NCBI GenBank assembly: GCA_009694735.1
Contig: SHUG01000006.1
Location: forward strand, 1-58,177
Direction: 5' to 3'
Length of the DNA: 58,177 bases
DNA from: Acidobacteriota bacterium
Lineage (GTDB): Bacteria > Acidobacteriota > Vicinamibacteria > Vicinamibacterales > UBA2999
Shown: positions 17,525-45,508 of the stretch, piece by piece
How the letters are laid out: each line of letters starts with the position of its first letter
Position numbering within the stretch: position 1 is the stretch's first letter
The notes under the pieces: model-generated
The model's input: the letters and a program-made list of their open reading frames with translations, nothing else
Told to the model about the DNA's origin: nothing
Database searches by the model: none
Translations under genes and position numbers: made by a program

Positions 17525-17547
17525 GTCCGGCTAAAGCCGGACGCTAC
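17525..17547 (+). repeat. Main palindrome family, perfect copy
   Basis: This copy reads GTCCGGCT-AA-AGCCGGAC and then GCTAC. It sits in the 130-base gap between the end of the S41 peptidase gene and the start of smc, so it could also act as a hairpin between the two cotranscribed genes. Confidence 0.75.
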
Positions 17548-17556
17548 GCCGATGTG

Positions 17557-19167
17557 TCAGGGCTTGGCGGTGCGGTTGCGCGACAGCTCCTGAAGCTTTT
17601 CGGCTTCCGGGAACTTGGAGATGGCAAAACGGGCCTGCGGATCGACTGTGACCAGGCGCTGGCGGGCGGTGGCGATGTCGAACACCGACTCGTCGATGTT
17701 GTAGCGGATTATGGCGCGGATGAAGTCGATGTCTTTCGTCCAGCCGGCCTCTTCAATCTTCACGTTGCGGCCGGTCACAAACGCCCTAAAGTCGGCGACC
17801 ATCGCTTCGTCGACCTCAAAGCCCTTGCGGACAATCTTGCGCGAGGGACCGGAGTGGCCGACGCGCGCGTCGCCTTCGGCGCTGAACTGTTCGGCGTAGC
17901 CGGCAAACAAGCCGCGTCCCTGCAACGCGCGGCCGAAGCGCGTGGGCGAGAAACCCTCGACCGGGCCGTCGAAGCGCAGGTCCGGCTCGATGCCGCCGCC
18001 CGAGAACACCTTGCGGCCTCCCGTCGTGTACTTCAACTGGTCTGGTGTCTTCGCGCGCTCGCTCTGATCCTTGAGCGTGTAAGTGAGGTACTCGTCGAAG
18101 GTGCCGTCCCACGGACGCTGAATCAGCCGGCCGCTCGGCGTGTAGTAGCGCGCGGTGGTGAGCGCGAGTCCGGCGCCGCCGCTGATCTTGTAGACCGACT
18201 GCACCAGCGCCTTGCCGAAGGTGGTCTCGCCGACCACCAGGGAGCGGTCGTAATCCTGCAGCGCGCCCGAGACGATCTCCGAGGCGCTGGCGCTGTTGCG
18301 GTTCACCAGCGTGATCATCGGGATGGTGGTGTACTTCGGCGTGTCGGTGGCGCGGTAATCAGAGTCGGAGTTGGCGACGCGGCCGCGCGTGTAGACCACC
18401 ATCGAACCCTTGGGCACGAAACGGTTGGTGATGCGAATGGCCTGGTCGAGCTGTCCGCCCGGGTTGCTGCGCAGGTCGAAGACCAGCCGCTTCATGCCCT
18501 TCTTGGTGAGCGCCTCAAGCGCCAGGCCGAGGTCTTCGTCGGTGTGCTCCGCGAAATCAGTGACCCCCACGTAGCCGGTGGTCGCATCGATCATGAACGA
18601 CGCCGAGAGGCTCGGGATGCTGACCTGGTCGCGCATCACGTTCATTTCGAGCAGGCGCTCGAAGCCCTTGCGGCGCACACCGATCTTGACGAACGTGCCC
18701 TTTGGCCCCTTCAGCTTGTTGACGGTCGCCTCGGTGGTCCAGCCCTTCGTGTTGGTGCCTTCGACGTCGGCAATCACGTCGCCGCGGCGAATGCCGTTGC
18801 TGAACGCCGGTGAGCCCTCAAATACGCGCACCGCGGTGATGTCGCCGTCGACCGACTGAATGGTGAGGCCGAGGCCGTAGTAGCGTCCCTCTTGCCGCTC
18901 GCGCATCTGCGCGTAGCTGCGTGGATCCATGAAACTCGAATGCGGATCCAGCGTTTGCAGCATGCCGTTGATGGCGCCGTAGACCATCCGGTCCGACTCC
19001 ACCGGCTGGGCATACTGGGTTTGGATGGCACTGAGCGCCGCCGTAAAGGTGCGGTAATGCTCTGGCACCGTGTTGGCGGTGGCCTGCGCACCCTTCCCGT
19101 AGACGCCGCCAACGACCGCGGAGACCACGATGGCGAGAAGAGCGGCAACGACGGCGCGGTAACGCAT
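17557..19167 (-). CDS. S41-family C-terminal processing peptidase
   Basis: The protein has 536 residues: one N-terminal membrane segment (about 4-23), a PDZ domain (about 95-175) and an S41 protease domain. The catalytic serine lies in NSASASE (about 291-297) and the lysine in FGKAL (K319). The SNPGG substrate-binding element is at about 234-238. Such Ctp/Prc proteases trim or degrade proteins outside the inner membrane. The C-terminal extension (about 400-536) is longer than in short CtpA forms. A TAGCAT hexamer six bases before the ATG, with no Shine-Dalgarno sequence, suggests a leaderless start. It lies upstream of smc on the same strand. Confidence 0.92.
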   Translation of the reverse strand: MRYRAVVAALLAIVVSAVVGGVYGKGAQATANTVPEHYRTFTAALSAIQTQYAQPVESDRMVYGAINGMLQTLDPHSSFMDPRSYAQMRERQEGRYYGLGLTIQSVDGDITAVRVFEGSPAFSNGIRRGDVIADVEGTNTKGWTTEATVNKLKGPKGTFVKIGVRRKGFERLLEMNVMRDQVSIPSLSASFMIDATTGYVGVTDFAEHTDEDLGLALEALTKKGMKRLVFDLRSNPGGQLDQAIRITNRFVPKGSMVVYTRGRVANSDSDYRATDTPKYTTIPMITLVNRNSASASEIVSGALQDYDRSLVVGETTFGKALVQSVYKISGGAGLALTTARYYTPSGRLIQRPWDGTFDEYLTYTLKDQSERAKTPDQLKYTTGGRKVFSGGGIEPDLRFDGPVEGFSPTRFGRALQGRGLFAGYAEQFSAEGDARVGHSGPSRKIVRKGFEVDEAMVADFRAFVTGRNVKIEEAGWTKDIDFIRAIIRYNIDESVFDIATARQRLVTVDPQARFAISKFPEAEKLQELSRNRTAKP

Positions 19168-19173
19168 AGGGCG

Positions 19174-19179
19174 ATGCTA
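19174..19179 (-). promoter_or_regulatory. Candidate -10 box, leaderless start of S41 peptidase
   Basis: TAGCAT on the minus strand is followed by six bases and the ATG at 19167. No consensus -35 is visible. Confidence 0.35.
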
Positions 19180-19285
19180 GCTGACTACCCGGGTGTCCGC
19201 AAGGATTCCCGGTGGGGGTATACTCCTGATTGGACGTTTGGGCCCCGGAAAGGGCCGTCCCAAGTCTTAGCAAGGGAGTTCTTCT

Positions 19286-19564
19286 ATGTTTGGTTCTATC
19301 GGAATGCCCGAGCTCATCATCATCCTGGTGATCGCGCTCATTATTTTTGGTCCCAGAAAGCTCCCGGAACTGGGCAAGTCACTCGGCCGCAGCTTGAACG
19401 AGTTCAAGAAGGCGTCCACCGACCTCCAGAACACGCTGGAACAGGAAATCAAGATCGAGGAGCAGAAAGAGGCGGCCGCCAAGGCGCCGGCGCCCGGCGC
19501 CGAGGTGATGCCGAACCACGACGAGGACAACGCACCGCCTCGCGAAACGGTTTCTCGCAGCTAG
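19286..19564 (+). CDS. tatA: Twin-arginine translocase subunit TatA
   Basis: This 92-residue TatA/E-type protein has one N-terminal membrane helix (about 7-21). The conserved FGPRKLPELGKSLG hinge and amphipathic helix come next, then a charged, Ala/Pro-rich tail. TatA forms the pore for export of folded proteins with RR signal peptides. An AAGGGAG lies about nine bases before the ATG. A TATACT at about 19218-19223 is a possible -10 box for the tatA-tatC unit. No separate tatB is present, as in minimal TatAC systems. Confidence 0.93.
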   Translation: MFGSIGMPELIIILVIALIIFGPRKLPELGKSLGRSLNEFKKASTDLQNTLEQEIKIEEQKEAAAKAPAPGAEVMPNHDEDNAPPRETVSRS

Positions 19565-19614
19565 GGCCGCAGATTAGGCACCGATTAGACACAGACTGCC
19601 TCTTGGACTAAGCC

Positions 19615-20454
19615 GTGGCGCTCGTTCCCTTTCCTAGCCAACGTCAAGACGACGACCCGCGACACCTGTCGGCTCAGGCGGCGAGCACCTCGCCGTTCGA
19701 CGAGCCCGAGGAGCCGGCCGAGGGCCGCATGACGTTCCTCGAGCACCTCGACGAACTGCGCAAGCGCATCACGCACGCCGTCGGCGCGCTGTTCATTGGC
19801 TTCATCGTCGCGCTCGCCTTCATCAATCAGGTCGTCGCCTTTGTTTATCAACGGCTGACTACCGATATTCCCGGCGGGCATCTGATTTACACCGAGCCCG
19901 GTGAAGCGTTTGTGCTGATGCTGAAGATCGCCGCGCTCTGCGGCGTGCTCGTTGCATCGCCCTACATCATGTGGCAGGTGTGGCTCTTCATCGCGCCAGG
20001 CCTGTACTCGAAGGAGAAAAAGCTCGCCATTCCCTTCGTGGTGGCCTCGTCGTCGCTATTCATCGGCGGTGCCGCGTTCGCCCACTACGTGGTCTTTCCC
20101 GCCGCCTGGAAATTCTTCGCCTCGTTCTCGAATGACTTCATCACGTTCACGCCGCGCATGGAGCCCGTCTTCGGGTTGTACGTCAAGCTGTTGCTTGGGC
20201 TGGGCCTCGTGTTCCAGATGCCCATGTTGATGTTCGTGCTGGCGCGACTGGGCATCGTGTCGGCGGGGTTCCTCGCGAAGAACTTCAAGTACGCCGTGTT
20301 GTTGATCTTAGTCGTTGCCGCCGTGATTACGCCCGACAGCAGCCCGGTCAGCCAGGTGCTGGTCGCCGGCCCAATGGTCGGGCTCTACATAATCGGCATC
20401 GGCGTCGCGTGGGCCTTCGGAAAATCCAAAAAACCAGATCAAGATAGCGAATAG
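19615..20454 (+). CDS. tatC: Sec-independent protein translocase TatC
   Basis: This is the 279-residue TatC, the receptor for twin-arginine signal peptides, with six membrane helices. TFLEHLDELRKRI and the ALCGVLVASPYIMWQVWLF region are standard. The frame opens at a GTG (19615), but the family core begins at an ATG at 19729. That ATG is preceded by a GAGGG, so a 241-residue protein is equally possible. It follows tatA after a 50-base gap that holds two similar GATTAGGCAC / GATTAGACAC units. Confidence 0.93.
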   Translation: MALVPFPSQRQDDDPRHLSAQAASTSPFDEPEEPAEGRMTFLEHLDELRKRITHAVGALFIGFIVALAFINQVVAFVYQRLTTDIPGGHLIYTEPGEAFVLMLKIAALCGVLVASPYIMWQVWLFIAPGLYSKEKKLAIPFVVASSSLFIGGAAFAHYVVFPAAWKFFASFSNDFITFTPRMEPVFGLYVKLLLGLGLVFQMPMLMFVLARLGIVSAGFLAKNFKYAVLLILVVAAVITPDSSPVSQVLVAGPMVGLYIIGIGVAWAFGKSKKPDQDSE

Positions 20455-20475
20455 ACCCTAAAGCCTAAGGTACGT

Positions 20476-20504
20476 TTGACTTCCGGGTTTTTCGGCTCTA
20501 GACT
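20476..20504 (+). promoter_or_regulatory. Sigma-70-type promoter of the OmpA-family gene
   Basis: TTGACT (20476-20481) and TAGACT (20499-20504) are spaced by exactly 17 bases. Six bases then separate the -10 from the ATG at 20511, so the predicted first transcribed base is the start codon itself. Confidence 0.65.
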
Positions 20505-20510
20505 GTGCGT

Positions 20511-22136
20511 ATGAAAATCATTCGCCATTTGGCGTTTGGCTTAATGCTGTCTGTCATGGCTGCGAGCGGAGCTTGGGCGCAGGATACCCGGCCCGGCAGT
20601 AGCACGATCTTTGGCGACACCGGACTCTGGTTCGTGCCCACCGGCGAAACGTTGACCAAGGGGCAATGGAGCGGCAGCATTGGCCGGGTCAACTTCGACC
20701 GGAGCGAGGGCTTCAGCGACATCAGCGACATCGGTGGCATGTTCGGCTTCGGTGTCACCAACCGCGTAGAGCTGTTCGGCACGATGGGCTTCCGCCGCAT
20801 CGATGCGGACCTTGTGCCGGTGGCCCGCAACGGTCAATCCCAGGATTACCTGATTAACAAGGGCTGGAGCACGGGCATCGGCGACCTCACGGTGGGTGCC
20901 AAGTTCAACCTGATGTCGCAGGCGGCCAACAACGGCTACGCCGCCGCGCTACGCGTCTCGGTGAAGGTGCCGACCGCCAGCGCGGACGATGGCCTCGGCA
21001 CCGGCAAGCCCGACTTCCAGTTCGACCTGATCGGGTCGCGTGAATACAACCAGCGCGTCGAACTCACCGCGGCCGCCGGCATCAAGGTACGCGGCCAGCC
21101 CGAAGGCTACAACCTCACACAGGGCTTCAAGTGGGGCATCGGCGCAGGCTTCCCCAGCCGCTCGAAGTTCAAGGCCATTGCTGAAATGCACGGCGAGGCA
21201 TTGTTCAACCAGAAGCAGAAGTACACCGGGCCGTCGCTCGCCTCGATCGGCATGCCGTCGGAATGGGATCCGGATGCCACGCGCGACCTGTTCGGCGGGT
21301 TCCAATACAGCGCCAACGGCTTCTATTTCGGGACCGGCGTGAGCTACGCGGCATCGTATGGCCGGCACCGCCGCGACTTCGTCGTTTCGGAAGACAGCGA
21401 CTTCGATCGCCTCGGCCTCCAGGTTCGCCTTGGCTACTACCCGGGCGTCCGTAACTTCGCACCACCGGCCGCGACCGTGCAGCCTTCCGCGCCGACCGCG
21501 CCGCCGATGCCGGCCAATCGCCCTCCCACGGTGAAGGCGCGCTGCGAACCGTGCACCGTGGAAGTGGGCCGCCAGCTCACCGCCTCCGCCGACGCGCAGG
21601 ACCCGGATGGCGACACCCTGCGTTACCGCTGGTCGAGCCCCACCGGCTCGTTCGGCAACGCCGCCGACCGCCAGACGCCCTGGACCGCTCCCGGCCAGGT
21701 TGGCGCCGTGCCGATCACCGTGACCGTGGATGATGGCAAGGGCATGACGGCCACCGACACCATTACGGTGCAGGTCATCGCGCCGGCCGCCAAGAAGCAG
21801 TTCGTCTTCGAAGACGTGCACTTCGACTTCGACCGCTACACCCTGCGCGCCGAAGCGACGCGGCTTCTGGATGAAGCCGTCAAGGCGATGAGCGAAGACC
21901 CGAACCTGCGCATCACCGTCGAAGGCCACACCTGCAACATCGGTACGACCGAATACAACCTGGCCCTCGGCGAACGCCGTTCCAACGCGGTGCGCGAGTA
22001 TCTCGCCAGCCGCGGTGTGGCAGCGGCCCGGCTCCAGAACGTGAGCTACGGCGAAGAGCGTCCGAAGCACGACAACAGCCGCGAAGAGACCCGGCGCCTC
22101 AACCGCCGCGCGGCTCTGACGATTCGAATGCAGTAA
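20511..22136 (+). CDS. OmpA-family outer-membrane protein with Ig/PKD-like insert
   Basis: The protein has 541 residues. A signal peptide ends in AWAQ (about residue 24). An outer-membrane barrel-like region follows (about 30-310), then a PKD/cadherin-like domain (RPPTVKARCEPC to TITVQVI, about 330-425). The C-terminal OmpA peptidoglycan-binding domain has FEDVHFDFDRYTL, VEGHTCNIGTTEYN and ALGERRSNAVREYL. It probably tethers the outer membrane to the cell wall. ATG 20511 is chosen over a GTG at 20505 because the promoter places the transcript start at 20511. A strong terminator follows. Confidence 0.9.
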   Translation: MKIIRHLAFGLMLSVMAASGAWAQDTRPGSSTIFGDTGLWFVPTGETLTKGQWSGSIGRVNFDRSEGFSDISDIGGMFGFGVTNRVELFGTMGFRRIDADLVPVARNGQSQDYLINKGWSTGIGDLTVGAKFNLMSQAANNGYAAALRVSVKVPTASADDGLGTGKPDFQFDLIGSREYNQRVELTAAAGIKVRGQPEGYNLTQGFKWGIGAGFPSRSKFKAIAEMHGEALFNQKQKYTGPSLASIGMPSEWDPDATRDLFGGFQYSANGFYFGTGVSYAASYGRHRRDFVVSEDSDFDRLGLQVRLGYYPGVRNFAPPAATVQPSAPTAPPMPANRPPTVKARCEPCTVEVGRQLTASADAQDPDGDTLRYRWSSPTGSFGNAADRQTPWTAPGQVGAVPITVTVDDGKGMTATDTITVQVIAPAAKKQFVFEDVHFDFDRYTLRAEATRLLDEAVKAMSEDPNLRITVEGHTCNIGTTEYNLALGERRSNAVREYLASRGVAAARLQNVSYGEERPKHDNSREETRRLNRRAALTIRMQ

Positions 22137-22603: not shown

Positions 22604-22627
22604 GTGGCGTCCGCCTTCAGGCGGACC
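22604..22627 (-). repeat. Main palindrome family, GTCCGCCT variant
   Basis: On the minus strand it reads GTCCGCCT-GA-AGGCGGAC followed by GCCAC. Both arms carry the matching C/G change relative to the commonest form. It fills the gap between proS and the DUF1428 gene. Confidence 0.75.
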
Positions 22628-22633
22628 TCGTTC

Positions 22634-24097
22634 CTAGTACGCCTTCGCGAACCAGGCACTGACCTTCCCGGGCTTGCCGCACTTGATGCAGGGCTTGCCT
22701 GGCGCCTGATCGTCGCCAAGTGGAATGTTGCGAATGGTCGCCTGCGTCTCGGCCTTGATGCCGGCTTCGCACTGCGCCTCTTCGCACCAGGGCGCGATCA
22801 CGAAACCGGGGCGGCCTGCCATGGCAGCCTTCAGTTCGTCGTAACTGTCGACCCTGGTGGTGTGGTCCTCGCGGAACGCGCGCGCCCGATCGAGCAGGTT
22901 CTTCTGGATCTCGGCCAGGAGCGCCGTGATCGCATCGGCCAGACCGTCCATCGGAATCGACGCCTTCACGCGCGTGTCGCGGCGCGCCGCAAAGACCGAC
23001 GACTTCTCGATGTCCTTGGGGCCGATCTCGAGGCGCAGCGGCACGCCACGCATCTCGTACTCCGAGAACTTCCAACCTGGCGTCTGGCTTTCGTCAGCAT
23101 CCAGCTTCACGCGAATGCCGGCCGCTCGCAACGTGGCGGCAATCTCTTCGCACTTGGGCAGCACCGTCTCTTTCCAGGTGCCACGGGGAATCGGCACGAT
23201 CACCACCTGAACCGGCGCCACGGCCGGCGGCAGGATCAGGCCGCTGTCGTCGCCGTGCGTCATGATCACGCCGCCGATCAGCCGCGTCGAGACGCCCCAG
23301 GACGTGGTCCACGCATGCTGCAAGGTCTTGTCGCGGCCCTGGAACTGAATCTCGAACGCCTTGGCGAAGTTCTGGCCGAGGTTGTGCGACGTGCCGGCTT
23401 GCAGCGCGCGGCCATCGCCCATCAGGGCCTCGATCGAATAGGTCTTCGACGCGCCGGCGAACTTCTCGCTGTCGCTCTTCTGGCCGTCGACCACCGGCAT
23501 CGCCAGGACGTTCTCCGCGAACTCCTTGTAGAGGCCGAGAATCTTCATGGTCTCTTCCTGCGCCTCGTCCGCGGTCTCGTGAGCCGTGTGCCCTTCCTGC
23601 CACAGGAATTCGGTCGTGCGCAGGAACGGACGGGTGACTTTTTCCCAGCGCACGACGTTCGCCCACTGGTTGATCAGCACCGGCAGGTCGCGCCACGACT
23701 GGATCCACTTCTGGTACATCACGCCGACGATGGTCTCGGAGGTCGGACGGATGACGAGCTTCTCTTCCAGTTCCTCACCGCCGCCATGGGTCACGTAGGC
23801 GACCTGCGGCGCGAAGCCCTCGACGTGCTGCGCTTCCTTCAGCAGCAGGCTCTCGGGAATCAGCAGCGGGAAGTACGCGTTGACGTGGCCGGTCGCCTTG
23901 AAGCGCTGGTCGAGTTGCTGCTGGATCAATTCCCAGATGGCATAGCCGTACGGCCGGATCACCATGAAGCCCTTGACCGGCGAGTAGTCGGCCAGTTCGG
24001 CTTTGCGAACGACATCGAGGTACCACTTCGAGAAATCGACCGACTGCTTGGTAATTTCCGTCACGAAGGCTTCGTCTTGATTAGGTTTCGCGGCCAT
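22634..24097 (-). CDS. proS: Prolyl-tRNA synthetase, archaeal/eukaryotic type
   Basis: This 487-residue class II synthetase charges tRNA-Pro. It is the short form without the editing insertion of typical bacterial ProRS. Motif 2 is seen at VVRWEKVTRPFLRTTEFLWQEGHTAH. The C-terminal zinc-like domain has CEEAQC and CIKCGKPG and ends in AKAY, as in archaeal-type enzymes. The ATG lies within the last bases of nadB (17-base overlap), so the two genes are coupled. A palindrome copy lies just 14 bases upstream of the start and no clear Shine-Dalgarno sequence is visible. Confidence 0.95.
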   Translation of the reverse strand: MAAKPNQDEAFVTEITKQSVDFSKWYLDVVRKAELADYSPVKGFMVIRPYGYAIWELIQQQLDQRFKATGHVNAYFPLLIPESLLLKEAQHVEGFAPQVAYVTHGGGEELEEKLVIRPTSETIVGVMYQKWIQSWRDLPVLINQWANVVRWEKVTRPFLRTTEFLWQEGHTAHETADEAQEETMKILGLYKEFAENVLAMPVVDGQKSDSEKFAGASKTYSIEALMGDGRALQAGTSHNLGQNFAKAFEIQFQGRDKTLQHAWTTSWGVSTRLIGGVIMTHGDDSGLILPPAVAPVQVVIVPIPRGTWKETVLPKCEEIAATLRAAGIRVKLDADESQTPGWKFSEYEMRGVPLRLEIGPKDIEKSSVFAARRDTRVKASIPMDGLADAITALLAEIQKNLLDRARAFREDHTTRVDSYDELKAAMAGRPGFVIAPWCEEAQCEAGIKAETQATIRNIPLGDDQAPGKPCIKCGKPGKVSAWFAKAY

Positions 24098-25688
24098 GGC
24101 CTACATCTATGTGGTGTCCGGCTTCAGCCGGACCGCTCGGGTTTCTGTCGCCGATATGAACCTTAAAGTTTACGTCATCTCGGGCCGGGAAGTCGGCGCG
24201 GGCATGACCGCCCCTGGTTTCTTCCCGTCGCAAGGCGGCGCGCGCCATCAGCCTGCCGACCGTCACGATCGACGCGAGGCGCCAGTCGGCAGCGGACAAG
24301 CCGCCCGCCTCGATGCCCGGCGCCACCGCGGCGTACCACGCATCGAGCTGCTGGTTCGCGGCTTCCAGTGAGGCGCGCTCGCGCGTCAGCCCGACAGCGT
24401 TCCACATCAACGCTCGCACCGAGTCTCCGGTTGGCCCGCCTTCGCCCGCCCGACCTTGCGCGGGCTTCGGCGCGGGCGCCTCGACCACGGTTTCGGCGAG
24501 CTGTCCTGGCTCGGGTGGCAACAACATGGCCTGCGCCGCACGGGCACCAAACACGAGTCCTTCGAGCAGCGAGTTGCTCGCCAGCCGATTCGCGCCATGC
24601 ACGCCCGTACACGCCACCTCCCCCGCCGCCAGCAGCCCCGCCATCGTCGTGCGGCCCCAGAGGTCTGTTTCGACGCCGCCCATCACGTAATGCGCGGCAG
24701 GACCCACCGGAACGCGGTCGGTCGCGAGGTCGAAGCCAGCTTCGCGGCACGCCGCGGCAATGGTCGGAAAGCGGCTGCGAACCCACGCCGGATCGAGGTG
24801 TTGCATCGACAGGAACACCGGCTCGCCGGTACGCTGTTGTTCGCGCACGATCGCGCGCGACACCAGGTCGCGCGACGCCAGTTCCCCGGCCGCCTCGTAG
24901 CGAGTCATGAACCGTTCACCGGCAGCGTTCAACAGAAAGGCCCCCTCGCCACGCATGGCTTCCGAGAGCAGGAACCGGGGCGCGCCTGGCGCGCTGAGCG
25001 CCGTCGGGTGGAACTGAACAAACTCGAGGTCAGCGACCCGGGCGCCGCAGTGCCAGGCCAGGGTGACGCCATCACCGGTGGCGATCGACGGGTTGGTGGT
25101 CTCCCCGAACACCTGCCCGGCGCCGCCGGTGGCAATCAGCACGGCGGCGGCTTCCACGGTGTGGGTGCCGCGTTCATCCTCATACGCGGCGCCGGCGCAC
25201 TTGCCCTGCCGAACCAGCAGGCGGGTGACGCGGGCGTTGCGCTCCACGCGCACGCGCGACTGCTCGGCCGCCTGGTTCCACAGGGCGCGGCCAATTTCAC
25301 GGCCGGTCGCGTCGGCCGCGTGCATCACGCGGCGCAGGCCATGCGCGCCTTCCCGGCCGAACGAAAGCTCGCCGGACGGTTCGCGATCGAAGCGCGCGCC
25401 AGTCGCAACCAGCTCGCGGGTGTACTTCACGCCGTCTTCAACCAGCACGCGAACCGCCGGCTCCACGCACAGCCCATCACCGGCCGCGATGGTGTCGGCC
25501 GCAGGCAGATCCGGCGAGTCGCCGGGACCAAGCGCGGCGGCGATGCCGCCCTGCGCGTAGCCGGTGTTGCTCTCGGTGGGATCGGCCTTGGTGAGAATGA
25601 GGACGTCACCGGCCAACGCCAGATCGGCGGCCGCGCGCAGTCCCGCGATGCCGCTGCCAATCACCAGAAAGTCCGAACGCCGCTGCAC
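24081..25688 (-). CDS. nadB: L-aspartate oxidase
   Basis: This 535-residue flavoenzyme oxidises L-aspartate to iminoaspartate, the first step of de novo NAD synthesis. The N-terminal GSGIAGLRAAADLA binds FAD; GGIAAALGPGDSPDL, the HPTAL segment and GEVACTGVHGANRLASNSLLEGL are standard NadB motifs. The start is a GTG with a TGA-TACGAT extended -10 six bases upstream, suggesting a leaderless transcript. Two parts look repeat-derived: PKPAQGRAGEGGP at about residues 409-421, and the tail RNPSGPAEAGHH, which is encoded by a palindrome copy. nadA and nadC are not nearby. Confidence 0.93.
   Translation of the reverse strand: MQRRSDFLVIGSGIAGLRAAADLALAGDVLILTKADPTESNTGYAQGGIAAALGPGDSPDLPAADTIAAGDGLCVEPAVRVLVEDGVKYTRELVATGARFDREPSGELSFGREGAHGLRRVMHAADATGREIGRALWNQAAEQSRVRVERNARVTRLLVRQGKCAGAAYEDERGTHTVEAAAVLIATGGAGQVFGETTNPSIATGDGVTLAWHCGARVADLEFVQFHPTALSAPGAPRFLLSEAMRGEGAFLLNAAGERFMTRYEAAGELASRDLVSRAIVREQQRTGEPVFLSMQHLDPAWVRSRFPTIAAACREAGFDLATDRVPVGPAAHYVMGGVETDLWGRTTMAGLLAAGEVACTGVHGANRLASNSLLEGLVFGARAAQAMLLPPEPGQLAETVVEAPAPKPAQGRAGEGGPTGDSVRALMWNAVGLTRERASLEAANQQLDAWYAAVAPGIEAGGLSAADWRLASIVTVGRLMARAALRREETRGGHARADFPARDDVNFKVHIGDRNPSGPAEAGHHIDVGHGRET
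24111..24135 (-). repeat. Main palindrome family, within nadB 3' end
   Basis: On the minus strand it reads GTCCGGCT-GA-AGCCGGAC followed by ACCAC. It encodes the SGPAEAGHH tail of NadB and lies immediately upstream of the proS start codon. Confidence 0.75.
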
Positions 25689-26870: not shown

Positions 26871-26894
26871 GGTCGGGCTAAAGCCCGACGCTAC
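26871..26894 (+). repeat. Main palindrome family, GTCGGGCT variant
   Basis: Arms GTCGGGCT and AGCCCGAC enclose AA, followed by GCTAC. It fills the gap between convergent aroB and the NtrC-type gene, and its CTA provides the TAG stop of the latter. It may serve as a two-way hairpin terminator. Confidence 0.75.
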
Positions 26895-28285
26895 AGGTGA
26901 TACTGGCGCAGCTTCACTTCGAGCGACTTGAAGTTGATCTGAAGCAGATCGGCGGCGCGGCCGCGGTCGCCGCCGGCGTCGTGCAACGCCTGCTGAATCT
27001 TCCGCCGCTCGGTTTCAGCCACGGTTCGCGCGGTCGCTTCGGCGAGGCTGCCACTGAGGTCGATGCGCTCCCACGGATCGATCGACGAACCACTCTTTGG
27101 CACTGGCGACAAACTGAGGTGTCGCGGCAACAGCGTGTCGCCGTCGGCCAGGATCACGGCGCGCTCGATCGCGTTCTGCAGCTCGCGGATGTTGCCGGGC
27201 CACGAGTGCGCCATCAATTCAGCGACGGCCTCTGGCGACAGCGTCATCTTCTTGCCCACATCCCGGCACACCCGCTCGACGAAGTGGTGCGCCAGCTTCG
27301 GGATGTCCTCGCGCCGGTCGCGTAGCGCCGGCACCTCCACCGGGAACACCGACAGGCGGAAGTAGAGATCCTCGCGAAACTGCCGGGCCGCCACCGCCTG
27401 CCGCAACCCACGGTTGGTGGCGGCGACAATGCGCACGTCGAGCTGGATCGAAGCGCCGCCGCCCAGCCGTTCGATCTTGTGTGTTTCAATCGCGCGCAGC
27501 ATCTTGCCCTGCACGGTCATCGGCATCTCGCCGATTTCGTCGAGAAAGAGGGTGCCGCGCTGCGCCAGTTCAAAGCGCCCGAGCTTGCGCTGGTTCGCGC
27601 CGGTAAAGGCGCCCCGCTCGTAGCCAAACAGCTCGGCCTCGAGCAATGTGTCGGGGATGGCCGCGCAGTTAATGGCGACAAACGGGCCCGCCGATCGCGG
27701 ACTGCGATCGTGCAGCGCCCGCGCGCAGAGCTCCTTGCCGGTGCCGCTCTCCCCCTCCAGCAGCACCGTGGTGTCACTGTTGGCGGCGCGGCCGATGGCG
27801 GTCATCGCCAGGCGCAGGGCCGGCGAGTCGCCGATGATGTGCGGCCCGCCGCGCCGGGCCGCGGCCTCTTCCTTGAGCAGCCGGTACTCATTCAGCAGGC
27901 GGCGCTGCGCAAGCGCGCGTTCCACCAGCAACAGCAGATGATCGGGATCGACGGGCTTGGCCAGAAAGTCCAGCGCCCCCTGCTTCATGGCGGACACGGC
28001 GTCCTGGATGCTGCCGTGGGCGGTCATGACGATGACCGGCAGCTCGGGGTCGGCCTCTTTCGCCGCGCGCAGCACCCCAAGGCCGTCGCCAATCGGCAGG
28101 CGCAGGTCCGACAGCACGACCGCCGGCTGGGAATCGCGGAGGGCGGCGACGGCTTCGGGCTCGTCGCGCGCCTCGATCACGGCGTGGCCCTGCGCTTCGA
28201 GCGCCAGGCGCAGCATGGCGCGCAGCGAGTCTTTGTCCTCAACGAGCAGGATCGACGCCGCCGTCTCGGCGGCACGCGCGCTCAC
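26891..28285 (-). CDS. NtrC-family sigma-54 response regulator
   Basis: The protein has 464 residues. A receiver domain (about 10-125, phospho-acceptor D in LSDLRLP) is followed by an AAA+ domain (about 150-380) with GESGTGKE Walker A and an intact GAFTGA loop for sigma-54 contact. A C-terminal Fis-type helix-turn-helix (GDRGRAADLLQINFKSLEVKL) binds DNA. The GTG start overlaps the stop of the upstream unknown gene as GTGA. The nearest unpaired kinase is at 31186-32433, across the minor pilin genes, making those genes likely targets. Its stop codon comes from a palindrome copy. Confidence 0.92.
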   Translation of the reverse strand: MSARAAETAASILLVEDKDSLRAMLRLALEAQGHAVIEARDEPEAVAALRDSQPAVVLSDLRLPIGDGLGVLRAAKEADPELPVIVMTAHGSIQDAVSAMKQGALDFLAKPVDPDHLLLLVERALAQRRLLNEYRLLKEEAAARRGGPHIIGDSPALRLAMTAIGRAANSDTTVLLEGESGTGKELCARALHDRSPRSAGPFVAINCAAIPDTLLEAELFGYERGAFTGANQRKLGRFELAQRGTLFLDEIGEMPMTVQGKMLRAIETHKIERLGGGASIQLDVRIVAATNRGLRQAVAARQFREDLYFRLSVFPVEVPALRDRREDIPKLAHHFVERVCRDVGKKMTLSPEAVAELMAHSWPGNIRELQNAIERAVILADGDTLLPRHLSLSPVPKSGSSIDPWERIDLSGSLAEATARTVAETERRKIQQALHDAGGDRGRAADLLQINFKSLEVKLRQYHL

Positions 28286-39516: not shown

Positions 39517-41195
39517 GACGCCCGGCCCTGCCGCGCGGCCGCCGCCGGGCGAGCGGCCGGGAACGTCACCCGAAACGCCGTGCCCCGGCCGGGGCGTGAG
39601 CGAACATCGATGTGGCCGCCGTAGTCGGTGACAATCCGATGGACGATCGCCAGGCCGAGGCCGGTGCCCTTGCCGAAGGAGCCGCGAAACGGCTGGAAGA
39701 TGGCGTCAACGTCTTCAGCCGCAATGCCAACACCTTCGTCCTCGATCAGCAGCACGGAGGAGCGCTGCTCGCCCGACAGTTGTTCGAGCGCGCTCAATGT
39801 CAGCGTGCCGCTCTCGGGCATCGCGCGCAGGCCGTTGGTGGCGAGGTTCCAGGCGATCTGCCGGATCTGCCCTTCGTCGGCGTCCACCATGACCTCGTGT
39901 CCGGGCAGGCGGACGTCAATCGTGTGACGCTCCTCCACCTCGGGGCTGTTGCGCAACAGCATGGCGATCTCCTGGATCGTGGTGCGCAAGTCGATCTGCT
40001 GCACCTGGAATCGCTGGGGCCGCGCATAGGCGAGGAACGACTTGATGGTCTGGTTCAGCCGCTCCGACTCGCGCAGCACGATGTCCATCAGCTGCGCCTG
40101 GTCGGTCGAGAGCGGCAGCTCCTCCTTCAGCATCTGCATGGAGCCCGACATCGAGGCGAGCGGGTTGCGGATCTCGTGGGCGATACCGGCCGCCATTTCG
40201 CCGACCGCGGCCAGGTGCTGCTGCAACCGCGCGCTCTGTTCGAAGCGCTTGACGTCGGTGACGTCCTGGAAGGTGTAGAGGTGCCCGCGCGTGCCGTCGG
40301 GCAGCGGCAGCGCCGCCACGCTCACCCCGAGGTCGATCAGCTGGCCGTCGGGCCGGCGGAACTGGTAATCGGTGCGCCGGCTGCGCACGCGCGCGAGATC
40401 TTGCGAGATGGTCGCTGCGAACGCCGACGGCAACTGCAGCACGTCGCCGGCCGCTTCGCCAATCGGCAGCGCGCCGGCGCGCCCGGTGATGATCATCGCT
40501 GACCGGTTGAACGTCACCAGGCGGTTGCCGGCGTCGGCGGTGGCCAGCCCGCTCAGCAAGTTGTCCAGCACGTACTGGTTGAAGGCCTGCAGGTCGGCGA
40601 TCTCTTCGGTCGCCTGCACCAACTGCGCCTCGCCGGTGCGCGCCCGCTCCGCCAGCGACCCGCTCAGCAGCGCCACCGCGAAGAACCCGAACGTGTTCAG
40701 CGCCACGGTGTACTCGGCGACGCTGACCGTCGGGAGCGCGGCCGGCGGCAGGCTGAAGGGCATCGCGAGCTGATCGGCGGCGTAGAGGTACTGCAGCAGC
40801 ACCACGCCGATGAACAGGACCGTGCTGAGTGTGGCCAACTGCATCCCGCCACGGCGGAACTGCACCGACGCTGCCGAGACGATCGGCAGCATGTAGAGGA
40901 TGGTGAACAGGCTCTCGACGCCGCCGCTCAGCATGATCGCGACCGAGATGATGACGGCGTCGATCGCGAAGTGCACGTCGGTCAGCCAAGGCGAGCGGTC
41001 GACGAGTGGCAGCGAGGCGATAAAGCCGAGGCTCACCGCGTAGGTGAGGCCGATCAGGAAGAAGAACGGGTTGATGGCCCAGGCTCCGGGGGCGCGCAGT
41101 TCCACCACCAGGGCCAAGCCGAGCAGCACGGTCGCCACCACCAGGCGGACGGCAATATGCACCGCCAGCCGCTGCCTGAGGGTCCGCACCTTCAT
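39513..41195 (-). CDS. pilS: Type IV pilus sensor histidine kinase PilS
   Basis: The protein has 560 residues. Six membrane helices (about 12-190) are followed by a PAS domain (about 215-320) and HisKA with H in GIAHEIRNPLASMSGSMQM. HATPase_c has NLATNGLRAMP, DEGVGIAAED and GTGLGLAIVH motifs. This matches PilS, which senses pilin in the membrane and phosphorylates PilR. It overlaps pilR by four bases and shares one base with the pilC stop (TGATG), so pilB-pilT-pilC-pilS-pilR run as one operon. Confidence 0.93.
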
Positions 41196-42412
41196 CAGGT
41201 CAGCTTGCTGATCAGGTCGAAGATCGGCATATACATGGCGATCACGATGCCGCCGACGGCGCCGCCGAGCAGCGCAATCATCAGCGGCTCGAGCAGCGTC
41301 AGCAGGCCTTCGACCGCGACGTCCACTTCTTCCTCGTAGAAGTCGGCGATCTTGCTGAGCATGGTGTCGAGGGCGCCGGTCGCCTCGCCGACGCTGATCA
41401 TCTGGCAGACCATGCTGGGGAACACGCCGGTCTCCTTGAGTGGCGCCGAGATCGTCTCGCCCCGCTCGATGCTCTTGCGCGTGACCTGGATGGCGTCTTC
41501 GATAATCGCGTTGCCCGAGGTCCGGGCGGTGATGTCGAGGCCGTCGAGAATCGGCACGCCCGATGACATCAGCGTCGACAGCGTGCGGCAGAACCGGGCC
41601 ACCGCGATCTTTCGCAGGATCGACCCGAGGATCGGCACCTTGAGCGAGATCCCGTCAATCACCCGCCGCCCTTTTTCGGTGGCGTAGTAGGTGCGCAGCG
41701 CCCACCCGCCCGCGAAAAAGACCACGAAAAATATCGGCATGAAGCGGATCAGGTTTTCGCTGAGCGCAATGACCACGCGGGTCGGCAGCGGCAGCGTGGC
41801 GCCGAGGCCGGCGAACAGCGAGGCGAAGGTCGGGATGACCTTCCACAGGATGACGCCGATCACGACCGCCGCGATCACGATCACGGCAATCGGATAAATC
41901 ATCGCCGACTGCACCTGGCTCTTCAACTTGACGGCCTTTTCGATGTAGACCGCCAGGCGCTTCAGGATGGTGTCGAGAATACCGCCCGCTTCACCGGCGG
42001 CAATCATGTTGCAAAACAGCGCGTCGAACACCTTCGGGTACCGTTTCATGGCATCGGCGAGCGACATGCCGCCCTCAACGTCGGTGCGGGTGGCCAGGAT
42101 CACCTGGGAGAAATACTTGTGCTCCTCCTGGTTGCCCAGGATGTCGAGGCACTGCACCAGCGGCAGGCCGGCGTCGATCATCACCGAGAACTGGCGGGTG
42201 AACACCGCCAGGTTCTTGGCCGGCACGCCGCGTGGCTTCAGCGTCTTGAGCGCCGCCTTGGTCGCCGATTTGGCTTTGGCCGGCTGGATCCGCGTAACCT
42301 GGATCTGCTCGCGGCGCAGCGCCGCCACCACGGCATCCATCGTGTCGCCGATGCGTTCACCCGACACCGCTTCGCCGGTGCGGGTGCGTCCTGAGAATGT
42401 AAAAGTCGCCAT
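41195..42412 (-). CDS. pilC: Type IV pilus inner-membrane platform protein PilC
   Basis: The protein has 405 residues with two T2SF domains (about 70-195 and 275-400) and three membrane helices. FTRQFSVMIDAGLPLVQCLDILG and its second-half counterpart FCRTLSTLMSSGVPILDGLDI are diagnostic. PilC couples the PilB and PilT motors to the growing pilus. It follows pilT after 15 bases. Confidence 0.95.
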   Translation of the reverse strand: MATFTFSGRTRTGEAVSGERIGDTMDAVVAALRREQIQVTRIQPAKAKSATKAALKTLKPRGVPAKNLAVFTRQFSVMIDAGLPLVQCLDILGNQEEHKYFSQVILATRTDVEGGMSLADAMKRYPKVFDALFCNMIAAGEAGGILDTILKRLAVYIEKAVKLKSQVQSAMIYPIAVIVIAAVVIGVILWKVIPTFASLFAGLGATLPLPTRVVIALSENLIRFMPIFFVVFFAGGWALRTYYATEKGRRVIDGISLKVPILGSILRKIAVARFCRTLSTLMSSGVPILDGLDITARTSGNAIIEDAIQVTRKSIERGETISAPLKETGVFPSMVCQMISVGEATGALDTMLSKIADFYEEEVDVAVEGLLTLLEPLMIALLGGAVGGIVIAMYMPIFDLISKLT

Positions 42413-42427
42413 ATTGGTTCCTACCCG

Positions 42428-43573
42428 TTACGAGCCCGGCCGCATCGGCGGCCGCGGTCCAGCGCCCGGCCCGCCCGGCCGGCCCATGCCAGCCCCGGCG
42501 ACCACGCCGGCGCCGCGACTAATCATTTCCACAAGTTCTTCCCGGTTGGACGAAGCATTAACCGCGGTGTCCTGCGTGATGAGCCGCCGGAAGACCAGCG
42601 TGGCCAGCGACTGGTTCATCGTCTGCATGCCCAGTTTTTCCTGGCCGGTCTGCATCGCCGAGTAGATCTGGTGAACCTTGTCTTCGCGGATCAGGTTGCG
42701 GATGCCCGGCGTCGGCACCAGAATCTCGAGCGACACCACGCGGCCCTTGCCGTCAGCCCGCGGCAGCAGCGACTGACAGACGATGCCCTCGACCACCAGC
42801 GAGAGCTGGGTGCGGATCTGCGATTGCTGGTGCGACGGGAACACGTCGATGATGCGGTTGATGGTCGACGAGGCCGAGTTGGTGTGCAGTGTGCCGAACG
42901 TCAAGTGGCCGGTTTCGGCAATCCGCAAGGCCGACTCCACGGTCTCGAGGTCGCGCATTTCGCCGATCAGCACGACGTCGGGATCTTCACGCAGGGCGGC
43001 GCGCAAGGCCATGCTGAAACTGTGCGTGTCGCTGTGCAGCTCGCGCTGGTTGATCAGGCAGTTCTTGTGCTGATGCAGGTACTCGATTGGATCCTCGACG
43101 GTCAGGATGTGCCCGTGGCGCTCGGTATTGATCTTGTCGATCATCGCCGCCAGCGTGGTCGACTTGCCGCTGCCGGTGGGGCCCGTGACCAGCACGAGGC
43201 CGCGTGGCCGGTCGGCCATCTTGGCCAGCACCGCCGGCAGGCCGAGGTCTTCGAAGGTCCGGATCTTTTCCGGAATCTGCCGGTAGACGGCACCGACCGC
43301 GCCCTTCTGGTTGAACATGTTGCAGCGAAAGCGCGCCACGCCGCGGATGCCGAACGAGAAGTCCAGTTCCAGCGTCTCTTCGAACCGCTTCTTCTGCGCG
43401 TCGGTGAGCACCGCGTACGACAGCGACTTGGTGTCGGACGGCGTCAGGTCCGGGTGTTCGAGCTTCTGCAACTCGCCGTGCACCCGCACCTGGGGCGGCG
43501 AGCCGATCGAGAGGTGCAGGTCCGAACCCGATAGTTCAACGGTCTGCTTGAGCAAATCCGGTAACGTGGCCAT
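42428..43573 (-). CDS. pilT: Pilus retraction ATPase PilT
   Basis: The protein has 381 residues. An N-terminal PAS-like domain is followed by a RecA-like core with Walker A GPTGSGKSTT, the Asp box, the LIGEMRDLET Walker B and His-box GHLTFGTLHTNSA. The C-terminal GIRNLIRE motif is the retraction signature. The last about 20 residues are Gly/Pro-rich. PilT depolymerises the pilus, powering twitching. A palindrome copy separates it from pilB upstream. Confidence 0.95.
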   Translation of the reverse strand: MATLPDLLKQTVELSGSDLHLSIGSPPQVRVHGELQKLEHPDLTPSDTKSLSYAVLTDAQKKRFEETLELDFSFGIRGVARFRCNMFNQKGAVGAVYRQIPEKIRTFEDLGLPAVLAKMADRPRGLVLVTGPTGSGKSTTLAAMIDKINTERHGHILTVEDPIEYLHQHKNCLINQRELHSDTHSFSMALRAALREDPDVVLIGEMRDLETVESALRIAETGHLTFGTLHTNSASSTINRIIDVFPSHQQSQIRTQLSLVVEGIVCQSLLPRADGKGRVVSLEILVPTPGIRNLIREDKVHQIYSAMQTGQEKLGMQTMNQSLATLVFRRLITQDTAVNASSNREELVEMISRGAGVVAGAGMGRPGGPGAGPRPPMRPGS

Positions 43574-43588
43574 ATGGTTTCTCAGAAG

Positions 43589-43611
43589 GTCCGGCTAAAG
43601 CCGGACGCTAC
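43589..43611 (+). repeat. Main palindrome family, between pilB and pilT
   Basis: GTCCGGCT-AA-AGCCGGAC followed by GCTAC, a perfect copy, fills most of the 47-base pilB-pilT gap. Confidence 0.75.
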
Positions 43612-43620
43612 TTAACTGCT

Positions 43621-45408
43621 TTACTTCACGGTCTCGCGTAACACTTCTTCGATCGTGGTCACGCCGTCCTTGATTTTCCGCAGCCCGCTGCCGCGCAGCG
43701 TAATCATGCCTTCTTCGATGGCCTTGCGCCGAATTTCGAGCGCCGAGGCGCCGACCAGGATCAGCTCGCGCAATTCGTCGGTGACTTCCATCACTTCGTA
43801 AAGGCCGACGCGGCCCTGATACCCCGTCTTGAGGCACTTGTCGCAGCCGGTCCCCTTCTTGGGCTTCACCGAGGCGGCGTCGGCCGCCGAAAAGCCGACC
43901 TGCTCCATCGCCCCGGGCGGCAGCTCGTCTTCGACCTTGCAATTCACGCACACGCGCCGCACCAGGCGCTGCGCGCACACCAGGTTCAGCGAGCTGGCAA
44001 CCAGGAACGGTTCGATGCCCATGTTCATCAGTCGGCTGATGGTACTCGGCGCGTCATTGGTGTGCAGGGTGGAGAGCACGAGGTGTCCGGTGAGCGCGGC
44101 CTTGACGGCGATTTCCGCGGTCTCGAAATCGCGGATCTCGCCGACCAGGATGATGTTCGGGTCCTGACGCAGGAAGCTGCGCAGCGCGGCGGCGAAATTG
44201 AGGCCGATGCTCTCGCGCACCTGCACCTGGTTGACGCCGAGCAGGTTGAACTCGACCGGGTCCTCCGCCGTCATGATGTTGGTTTCGGAGGTGTTCAGCT
44301 TTGAGATCGACGAGTACAGCGTGTTGGTCTTGCCGCTGCCGGTTGGGCCGGTGACCAGCACCATGCCCCACGGTTTGGCGATCTGCGCCTCGAGCTTGGT
44401 AAGCGATTCCTGCTCGAAACCGAGCTTGGTCATGTCGAGCATCAGCTTGCCCTTGTCGAGCAGGCGCATGACGATCTTTTCGCCGAACAGCGTCGGCAGG
44501 CACGAGACGCGAAAGTCAATGTCCCTGGCCTGGCCGTTGTCGCTGAAGCGGATCTTGATGCGGCCGTCCTGCGGCAGCCGCTTCTCGGCGATGTCGAGCT
44601 TCGCCATGATCTTGACGCGCGAGGTGATGGCATCGCGCATCTTCAGCGGCGGCGCCATGATGTTGTAGAGGATGCCGTCCATGCGGTAACGGACGCGGTA
44701 TTCCTTCTCGTACGGCTCGATGTGGATGTCGCTGGCGCCCTTCGAGATCGCCGACATCAGGATGACGTTCACCAGCTTGATCACCGGGGCCTCTTCGCCC
44801 TGGCGGGTGAGCATCTCGGCGCTGATCTCTTCGAGATCGTCGAGCACCTCGACGTCGGAGCCGGCGGCCAGCATCGTCGGCATCTCGGTGAGCGAGCGGG
44901 TCGCCATTTCGAGCGCGCTCTCGCCGGTCGCCTCGGGCGCCGTGGTCGTGGTCTGGCCGCCGCGGCCGGCCACCGCCGGCCCGCCCGCGCCGTAGTACTT
45001 GTCGATCGAGTCGAGCACCGCCGTTTCCGACGCGACCACCGGCTCGACGTTGTAGCCGGTCATGAACTTCACGTCGTCCATCGCGAAGACGTTGGTGGGA
45101 TCGGTCATCGCGATCGTCAGCGTCGCGCCGGCGCGGCTGAGCGGGACGATCTGGTACTTGCGGGCGGTTTCGGCGGGCACCAGCTTGATCACCGCCGGAT
45201 CGATCTCGAACTGGTTCAGGGCAATCGAGGGCACGCCGTACTGCTTCGACAGCAGCGCGGTGATTTCCTCATCCTTCACGAAGCCCATCTTCACGAGGTT
45301 GGCGCCGAGCTTCCCCCCGTTCTGCTTCTGGTAACCCAGGGCTTCCTGAAGTTGGACCGCCGTGATGCGCTTCTCTTTCAGAAGCAGTTCACCAATCCTG
45401 ACCGCCAT
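43621..45408 (-). CDS. pilB: Pilus extension ATPase PilB
   Basis: The protein has 595 residues. An N-terminal MshEN/GspE_N domain (about 1-140, LLLKEKRITAVQLQEALGYQ...GKLGANLVKMG) is of the type that binds c-di-GMP in homologues. A RecA-like ATPase follows, with GPTGSGKTNT, VGEIRDFETAE and GHLVLSTLHTNDA. A zinc tetracysteine (CVNC and CDKC) lies between core and C-terminus. It drives pilus assembly. It is the first gene of pilB-pilT-pilC-pilS-pilR. The ATG at 45408 lacks a close Shine-Dalgarno; GGAGGGGAGAG lies about 15 bases upstream. Confidence 0.95.
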   Translation of the reverse strand: MAVRIGELLLKEKRITAVQLQEALGYQKQNGGKLGANLVKMGFVKDEEITALLSKQYGVPSIALNQFEIDPAVIKLVPAETARKYQIVPLSRAGATLTIAMTDPTNVFAMDDVKFMTGYNVEPVVASETAVLDSIDKYYGAGGPAVAGRGGQTTTTAPEATGESALEMATRSLTEMPTMLAAGSDVEVLDDLEEISAEMLTRQGEEAPVIKLVNVILMSAISKGASDIHIEPYEKEYRVRYRMDGILYNIMAPPLKMRDAITSRVKIMAKLDIAEKRLPQDGRIKIRFSDNGQARDIDFRVSCLPTLFGEKIVMRLLDKGKLMLDMTKLGFEQESLTKLEAQIAKPWGMVLVTGPTGSGKTNTLYSSISKLNTSETNIMTAEDPVEFNLLGVNQVQVRESIGLNFAAALRSFLRQDPNIILVGEIRDFETAEIAVKAALTGHLVLSTLHTNDAPSTISRLMNMGIEPFLVASSLNLVCAQRLVRRVCVNCKVEDELPPGAMEQVGFSAADAASVKPKKGTGCDKCLKTGYQGRVGLYEVMEVTDELRELILVGASALEIRRKAIEEGMITLRGSGLRKIKDGVTTIEEVLRETVK

Positions 45409-45436
45409 GACTAGCTAGCTTGCTCTCCCCTCCGAA

Positions 45437-45508
45437 GGTCCGCCTAAAGGCAGACACTACATCGAATATGGCACCATCGCCCATGTGGCGTCCGGCTTTA
45501 GCCGGACC
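45437..45508. repeat. Head-to-head pair of main-family palindromes
   Basis: A plus-strand copy (45438-45460, GTCCGCCT-AA-AGGCAGAC then ACTAC, one arm mismatch) faces a minus-strand copy (45485-45508, GTCCGGCT-AA-AGCCGGAC then GCCAC). They are separated by 24 bases. The pair fills the gap between pilB and the outer-membrane barrel gene and resembles REP doublets. Confidence 0.7.

What the first reader, a model, noticed from the sequence alone, without database searches (positions are those of the whole stretch)
17525..45508. Palindrome family whose arms covary around a fixed CT-RA-AG apex
At least seven copies share one design: an 8-base arm, the apex CT-(A/G)A-AG, the complementary arm and an RCYAC tail. 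Arm variants are compensated: GTCCGGCT/AGCCGGAC (17525, 24111, 43589, 45485), GTCCGCCT/AGGCGGAC (22604) and GTCGGGCT/AGCCCGAC (26871). Single-mismatch or reduced copies occur at 1319 and 45438. Two further palindromes (13522, 56615) have unrelated arms but the same apex. Paired changes argue that the hairpin, not the sequence, is maintained, as for REP elements or small RNA-like hairpins. The direct observation is the list; selection or RAYT-driven spread is inference.
Basis: partly seen in the sequence, partly recalled or inferred. Interest (0 to 1): 0.7.

Follow-up and report, generated by a model that had tools for sequence, protein, structure and literature searches.

The report
Transposase-linked hairpin repeats in acidobacterial genome
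The window carries eight copies of a small DNA hairpin lying mostly between genes, part of a family of more than a hundred in this acidobacterial genome, almost certainly spread by a single-strand DNA enzyme whose gene sits elsewhere in the genome between two copies of the same hairpin.

Summary
Eight copies (within 3 mismatches) of GTRGY-GTCCGSCT-TN-AGSCGGAC lie in the window. The window's draft genome has 123 exact matches to that pattern and 0 to the reversed control. In a 0.77 Mb sample, arm changes are compensated beyond permutation (24 double changes; permuted mean 2.8, maximum 8). The predicted RAYT gene exists (G000:C66, about 3741-4247). It passes NCBI's REP-transposase model and sits between two inverted copies of this repeat; its best-matching solved structure is E. 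coli TnpA-REP. At the same junctions congeners lack the copies or hold different numbers. So this is a GTRG-tagged REP family with its cognate REPtron: a known kind.

Read on the tag strand it is T-TN-A, the loop (T, T, any, A) that SELEX selected for a Marinomonas RAYT (PMC8266576). At 27 of 107 RAYT loci inverted two-base-loop hairpins have this apex. Other apices appear only in opposite-strand readings, two mixed cases and one 6-bp pair. Arms differ freely, and the tag is not GTRG at 5 of the 27. Palindromes 13522 and 56615 are sibling families with that apex.

The parts
1318..1340 (-). REP copy GTAGC-GTCCGGCT-TT-AGCCGGCC, one unpaired position; its site could not be compared with congeners
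17525..17547 (-). REP copy, exact consensus, GTAG head; no copy of this family at the aligned junction in 8 of 8 congeners (G001 and G006 have hairpins with the same apex but other arms there)
22604..22626 (+). REP copy, GTGG head, compensated arm GTCCGCCT/AGGCGGAC; no REP in 3 of 3 congeners that could be aligned (5 could not)
24111..24133 (+). REP copy, GTGG head; present in G005, absent from the other 6 of 7 aligned congeners (9-12 nt in its place in 4 of them); overlaps the 3' end of the minus-strand ORF 24081-25688
26872..26894 (-). REP copy with compensated arm GTCGGGCT/AGCCCGAC at the end of ORF 26891-28285; no copy of this family in 7 of 7 aligned congeners (read by eye; the script's pattern does not cover this arm)
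43589..43611 (-). REP copy; the ortholog in G003 has a paired arm change (GTTC/GAAC) and an altered apex; none in the other 5 of 6 aligned congeners
45438..45460 (-). REP copy with a T-G wobble; left half of a tags-inside doublet
45485..45507 (+). REP copy, GTGG head; right half of the doublet; G005 has three copies here, 5 of 6 aligned congeners have none (G003 and G008 only 19-20 nt)
13522..13546 (-). REP of a second family: GTGGA-GGCAACCCT-TC-AGGGTTGCC, same T-TN-A apex; GGCAACCCT-armed, GTAG-tagged hairpins flank a RAYT in G052 (L085)
56615..56642 (-). palindrome of a third family: CCAGAA-GGCCGGGACT-TC-AGTCCCGGCC between convergent ORFs, same apex, no GTRG at its foot; cognate RAYT not identified

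Best explanation
These are REP sequences (GTRG-tagged palindromes), non-autonomous elements spread by the RAYT/TnpA-REP encoded at G000:C66, about 3741-4247. Proposed mechanism: when the tag strand is single-stranded, for example during replication, GTRGY-hairpin folds. The RAYT binds the hairpin through its T-TN-A apex and the tag, cuts next to the element with its HUH/Tyr centre, and inserts the piece at another single-stranded site, often as doublets. Paired arm changes persist because copies with unpaired arms are processed poorly. Shown here: the repeats, the covariation, a RAYT with its catalytic residues flanked by inverted cognate REPs, occupied and unoccupied junctions, loop type clustered on the RAYT tree. 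Inferred: cleavage, strand state, present-day activity.
For: 123 exact matches against 0 control. Compensation: 24 double changes, permuted mean 2.8, maximum 8 of 1000. RAYT between inverted REPs; NF047646 83.9 bits against a cut-off of 80; profile match to 4er8 at 4.8e-12; H67, H69 and Y126 invariant in 11 aligned relatives. GTRG-tagged inverted hairpin pairs flank 38 of 110 RAYT loci (two of the 38 are repeat fetches) against 1-4 with seven control tags. At least 20 exact copies in 9 of 10 genomes with a RAYT of 44% identity or more, against 7 of 69 others. Arm variants seen beside the RAYTs of G020 and G022 are abundant there: 194 and 37 matches. Presence/absence at syntenic junctions. The loop T-T-N-A equals the loop selected for Marinomonas TnpA-REP; 80 of 87 copies keep T, T and A while the third base varies.
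Against: Ten of 69 genomes without a close RAYT hold 30 or more copies at up to 2 mismatches; in eight of them the exact fraction (0.36-0.64) is like that of RAYT-bearing genomes. So a close RAYT is not always detected; MAG gaps or a helper enzyme are possible. G014, G021, G043, G059 and G063 hold 16-34 matches of the second arm pattern without having been predicted. GTGG-headed copies are not followed by CC, as a simple guide rule from PMC8266576 would suggest. One of the two REPs at the own RAYT has GCGG, not GTRG. No biochemical test. The two other Y1_Tnp genes (77.1 and 72.7 bits, below the cut-off) have no family REP in the fetched flanks, one flank being only about 200 nt.
Confidence: 0.92

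Rival explanations
1. RNA hairpins: terminators or mRNA 3'-end stabilisers kept by selection at the transcript level, which would explain covariation without transposition.
For: Copies are mostly outside genes: 18 of 93 well inside ORFs against 79% of random positions (crude ORF calls). Wobble pairs occur in a few copies.
Against: No sense/antisense preference (16 against 14 among 30 copies between codirectional genes). No T run after the hairpin (87 copies), no terminator call at the REPs of 40000-58177, the only part scanned, no Rfam match in the window. RNA function does not explain the GTRG tag, the inverted copies around the RAYT or the unoccupied junctions.
Confidence: 0.05
2. Host protein binding sites kept in place by selection; the RAYT is incidental.
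For: Binding of REPs/BIMEs by several proteins is reported (PMC2817692 abstract; gyrase and IHF as examples are recalled). Not tested here.
Against: Turnover between congeners at the same junctions with neighbouring genes kept; arm and loop types go with the RAYT. It could hold as a secondary role.
Confidence: 0.05
3. Chance palindromes in GC-rich DNA.
For: The window is 65.6% GC.
Against: 0 reversed-control matches against 123 exact; 0 against 87 at up to 3 mismatches; apex and head conserved as sequence.
Confidence: 0.001

Closest known systems
GTAG-tagged REP superfamily (24 families, Di Nocera et al. 2013, PMC3733652)
   Same: 20-40 bp palindrome, GTAG/GTGG tag at one end, stem 6-13 bp, short loop often TY, sub-families with complementary stem variants, doublets, RAYT genes flanked by such repeats (abstract and Results part 1)
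   Different: Reported there in Proteobacteria, Cyanobacteria, Chloroflexi and PVC. The one mention of Acidobacteria concerns a group of transposases in the TIRYT discussion (passage only). I could not compare with their Figure 1 consensus (figures not held).
Group 3 REPtrons, e.g. Marinomonas sp. MWYL1 (PMC8266576)
   Same: Tag set off from the stem, perfect short stem, loop T-T-N-A whose T, T and A were selected while the third base was free, stem mismatch lowers cleavage (section 20)
   Different: Stem 7-8 bp rather than 5, offset 1 nt rather than 2. Protein motifs here (DHVH, WQ, YILENP) read more like subclass 2.7 ([ND]HVH, WQ, YI[LR][NQ]NP) than 2.5, the counterpart of group 3 (DH[LF]H, WQ, YI[VI]ANP), in Table 1 of PMC6006769.
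E. coli TnpA-REP/REP (4er8)
   Same: Best-matching solved structure to the RAYT profile; HUH and Tyr conserved; GTAG tag
   Different: E. [quoted passage not shown] the repeats here are mostly perfect and their loop is conserved.

Membership tests
REP element (GTRG-tagged) | High copy number, dispersed, mainly intergenic | tested here: met
   123 exact matches; 18 of 93 well inside ORFs against 79% expected, 14 more near an ORF end, 15 at stretch edges (crude ORF calls)
REP element (GTRG-tagged) | GTRG tetranucleotide at the 5' foot of a hairpin | tested here: met
   79 of 87 copies have GTRG
REP element (GTRG-tagged) | Palindrome with pairing maintained | tested here: met
   75 of 87 have perfect 8-bp stems; compensation above permutation
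REP element (GTRG-tagged) | Doublets/BIMEs in alternating orientation | tested here: met
   27 neighbour pairs under 150 bp in the sample: 13 tags inside, 10 tandem, 4 tags outside
RAYT / TnpA-REP | Y1 HUH transposase with the RAYT-specific model match | tested here: met
   NF047646 83.9 bits, cut-off 80; PF01797 37.4 bits, cut-off 23
RAYT / TnpA-REP | HUH motif, catalytic Tyr, N-terminal Thr, NP(L/V)(R/K)xG | tested here: met
   H67, H69, T24, Y126 invariant in A1 (motif list from PMC2817692). Own protein has NPIRAG, Ile where the paper gives L/V; the final G holds in 9 of 11 rows
RAYT / TnpA-REP | Gene flanked by two cognate REPs in inverted orientation | tested here: met
   L033 1303-1325(+) and 1916-1938(-) around 1378-1884(-); the first has GCGG instead of GTRG
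RAYT / TnpA-REP | Strand-specific cleavage of the REP | not testable with these tools
   needs biochemistry
RAYT group 3 / subclass 2.5 | Motifs DH[LF]H, WQ, YI[VI]ANP | tested here: not met
   own protein DHVH, WQ, YILENP; not filed under this subclass
RAYT subclass 2.7 | Motifs [ND]HVH, WQ, YI[LR][NQ]NP and long canonical REPs | tested here: inconclusive
   YILENP has E where N/Q is listed; REP stem is 7-8 bp; no tree with reference members was built

The most novel reading that the evidence does not exclude
The T-TN-A apex is an old, cross-phylum recognition code of one RAYT clade, more constant than either the arms or the GTRG tag. In the window's own genus, RAYTs of G001 and G008 are flanked by GGAG-tagged hairpins (GTTCGGAG-AGCGACGGCT-TY) and that of G007 by TGAG-tagged hairpins with family-like arms, all with the same apex. 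RAYTs would thus switch tag and arms while holding the loop, giving a natural series for reading the protein-to-hairpin code.
Probability: 0.4. Interest if true: 0.6.

Novelty: new member of a known kind. Interest (0 to 1): 0.4.

Why it matters
It places an abundant REP/RAYT system that turns over between congeners in Acidobacteriota. The same loop occurs beside RAYTs of this clade in loci labelled as several phyla, with arms and sometimes the tag replaced. Together with published SELEX on one member, this makes the question of what a RAYT reads in its hairpin testable on natural variants, and the congeners supply matched occupied and unoccupied junctions.

Tried and rejected
Chance palindromes: rejected by controls.

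Intrinsic terminators or known RNA families: no T tract, no call at REPs of 40000-58177, 0 Rfam matches in the window.

GTGG heads followed by CC: looked for in 39 GTGG-headed copies and not seen (CT 14, CG 10, CA 7, other 8, CC 0). Instead C is enriched at +1 (61 of 87) and A, T at the two bases before the head (65 and 64 of 87); whether these are cut sites is unknown.

Orphan REPs decaying without a RAYT: not supported; eight of ten such genomes have exact fractions of 0.36-0.64, two have 0.

The two other Y1_Tnp genes as sources: no family REP in the fetched flanks, below the RAYT cut-off.

A claim that I first meant to make, that every two-base-loop pair at RAYTs has the T-TN-A apex, did not survive a recount: L183 has a 6-bp C-TT-G pair with a GTGG tag, and L097 and L113 give mixed T-GN-A readings.

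Literature searches: 'REP-associated tyrosine transposase' + 'repetitive extragenic palindromic', Acidobacteria + 'repetitive extragenic palindromic', RAYT + REPIN, RAYT + acidobacteri (15 of 48 listed), Vicinamibacter + transposase + palindrom (0 papers). I saw no title on acidobacterial GTRG REPs in these listings; subscription journals are not held and papers were not all opened, so this does not prove absence.
Full report
What is there. On the strand that carries the tag the repeat reads GTRGY-GTCCGSCT-TN-AGSCGGAC. The window holds eight copies within 3 mismatches. Folded as single-stranded DNA, the four single copies tested (45485, 17525, 26872, 45438) give a 7-bp stem with the loop TTTA, and the 13522 palindrome an 8-bp stem with the loop TTCA; 0-1 of 200 shuffles fold as well.

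More than chance. In 41 stretches (40 fetched plus the window, 769,539 bases) there are 128 perfect 8-2-8 palindromes of any sequence against 33, 33 and 30 in Markov resamples; 80 of the 128 have the apex CTAAAG, CTTTAG, CTTCAG or CTGAAG. Scoring 19 fixed positions of the consensus gave 87 copies with at most 3 mismatches and 6 more at 4. The reversed consensus gave 0 and 22 (strands not merged). I therefore rely on the 87, though some counts below use the 93. Genome-wide there are 123 exact pattern matches and 0 reversed. The 276 matches at up to 3 mismatches and 207 at up to 2 include some hairpins counted on both strands.

Covariation. Selection of copies did not ask for pairing. Among 87 copies, 24 pair positions carry a change on both sides that keeps the pair and 16 carry a change on one side. 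Permuting right arms gives a mean of 2.8 and a maximum of 8 in 1000. Fourteen of the 24 are one subfamily. Without it, 10 double changes of 6 kinds remain against a mean of 0.5 and a maximum of 5. Copies are related by descent, so the permutation is not a strict probability. The loop is among the most constant parts: first loop base T in 82, closing T-A in 83, both in 80 of 87, while the second loop base is T 52, C 26, G 7, A 2.

The enzyme. The genome has three Y1_Tnp genes. One, G000:C66 about 3741-4247(-), scores 83.9 bits on NCBIfam's REP-associated tyrosine transposase (cut-off 80); the other two score 77.1 and 72.7, below it. The stretch I translated begins one codon before an ATG; an open frame continues upstream through the REP, so the start is inferred. 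Only this gene is flanked by family copies: a GCGGC-headed one at L033 1303-1325(+) and a GTGGC-headed one at 1916-1938(-), inverted around the gene. In an alignment of 11 relatives H67, H69, T24 and Y126 are invariant. Among solved structures the best match to that profile is E. coli TnpA-REP 4er8, E 4.8e-12.

Taxon. The eight best named hits are Acidobacteria, one of them labelled Vicinamibacterales. That the window is Acidobacteriota follows; the order name is my inference.

RAYT and REP go together. Of 79 genomes, 10 (the own genome included) have a RAYT of at least 44% identity. Nine of these 10 have 20 or more exact copies against 7 of 69 others (Fisher 5e-7); with up to 2 mismatches and a threshold of 30 it is 10 of 10 against 10 of 69 (1.3e-7). 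The genomes are related and the thresholds were mine, so these probabilities are indicative. Against the simple picture, ten genomes without a close RAYT hold 33-302 copies, eight of them largely intact. A prediction was tested: arms seen beside the RAYTs of G020 (GCCCGGCT on one side) and G022 (GGCCGGCT) should be amplified there. The combined pattern gave 194 matches in G020 and 37 in G022, 1 in the own genome and none in 65 of 79; but G043 (34), G059 (26), G063 (22), G021 (17) and G014 (16) also had it, and six more genomes 1-8.

Apex against arms and tag. On a tree of 37 the T-TN-A loop (19 rows) needs 5 changes, against a shuffled mean of 12.6, 0 of 500 as low; only 7 of 34 inner branches are well supported. 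Without asking for a tag, inverted pairs of two-base-loop hairpins with stems of 7 or more show the apex T-TN-A at 27 of 107 distinct loci. TA (12) and TG (8) appear too, and are the same hairpins read on the other strand except for mixed pairs at L097 and L113; the other 13 apices gave 0. Allowing 6-bp stems adds two T-TN-A loci, one C-TT-G pair (L183, GTGG-tagged; also read as CA) and one mixed TC pair (first count). The 27 include loci whose records are labelled Eremiobacterota, Deltaproteobacteria, Chloroflexi/Dehalococcoidia, Desulfobacteraceae, Zixiibacteriota and Thiotrichaceae (titles; mostly MAGs, so contamination is possible). GTRG is at the foot in 22 of the 27; L082, L090, L096, L113 and L166 have other tags. 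Three of these are from the window's own genus: GGAG in G008 and G001, TGAG in G007. The loci were gathered with a profile of T-TN-A-type RAYTs, so they favour this clade. PMC8266576 (section 20 and section 23 part 1 read; passages elsewhere) reports for Marinomonas that loop positions T12, T13 and A15 were selected, position 14 was free, and a stem mismatch lowered cleavage. The natural variation here is the same pattern.

Movement. Neighbouring genes are kept in the genus and the junctions differ. At 45409-45512 the own genome has a doublet, G005 three copies, and the other five of six aligned congeners none, G003 and G008 having only 19-20 nt. At 43589 G003 has a REP with a paired arm change and altered apex, the other five of six none. 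At 24111 G005 has one, the other six of seven none. At 17525 0 of 8, at 26872 0 of 7 and at 22604 0 of 3 congeners have a family copy; 1318 could not be compared. At 17525 the G006 junction instead holds a GGCGGGACT-armed and the G001 junction an ACAAACCT-armed hairpin with the same apex, so one junction can carry different families. Losses cannot be told from gains at single sites; the sum shows turnover.

Context. Crude ORF calls put 18 of 93 copies well inside ORFs against 79% of random positions, 14 near an ORF end, 30 between codirectional genes (16 sense, 14 antisense), 12 between convergent and 4 between divergent ones, 15 at stretch edges. Neighbours within 150 bp: 13 tags inside, 10 tandem, 4 tags outside.

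The other two palindromes. 13522 belongs to a GTGGA-GGCAACCCT family (6 distinct sites in this genome at up to 1 mismatch), whose arms match GTAG-tagged hairpins beside a RAYT in G052. 56615 belongs to a CCAGA(A)G-headed family (5 in the sample, itself included). Its slot between convergent genes holds a GGGACT-armed hairpin in G003, a GCGACGGCT-armed one with GGAG before it in G005, and other, often A+T-rich repeats in most others, so a terminator-like role there cannot be excluded.

Known kind. The features match GTAG REPs and REPtrons (PMC3733652: abstract, outline, Results part 1 of 4 and passages; PMC2817692: abstract, outline and section 7; PMC6006769: passages and sections 13 and 17). 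In the passages that I saw, these surveys name Acidobacteria for a group of transposases in the TIRYT discussion and for class 3 with atypical structures; I did not read them whole. I call the window's repeats a new member of a known kind; the RAYT subclass is not settled.

Noticed in passing
54767(-), 30489(-), 25741(-) in the window; more in the 0.77 Mb sample: A second repeat with the core CTTCGCCNAGGCTACGGCGGRC: 33 and 25 matches to its two half patterns in the sample against 0 and 1 in a shuffle. It also lies in open frames of L032 and L033 (LRQGYGGQ, SFAKATEGK peptides).
   Followed up: partly
L096 959-1440 and 2040-2280; L090 1377-2086; L082 1308-2007: RAYTs of the same genus flanked by hairpins with GGAG or TGAG instead of GTRG at the foot, same T-TN-A apex.
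   Followed up: partly
flanks of 87 family copies in the sample: A and T at the two bases before the head (65 and 64 of 87) and C right after the hairpin (61 of 87) are enriched; possible cleavage or target sites.
   Followed up: partly
L187, L188, L190, L225, L226, L229 at the aligned junctions: Congeners fill some of the same intergenic gaps with short tandem units of about 7 nt (ACTTTCA, TTAACTC, TTTTGCC, CGAATAA, read by eye) where the window has REPs or the 56615 palindrome.
   Followed up: no
L063 2483-2632 (C96) and L062 9301-9405 (C95): Tandem REP arrays with repeated spacers (21, 21, 16 nt and 18, 18 nt), i.e. unit amplification.
   Followed up: no
G003, G005, G009, G037, G058, G063: Genomes with 43-302 family matches but no RAYT of 44% identity or more; four of the six are 97-100% complete. 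Exact fractions are 0.36-0.60 in five, 0 in G063.
   Followed up: partly
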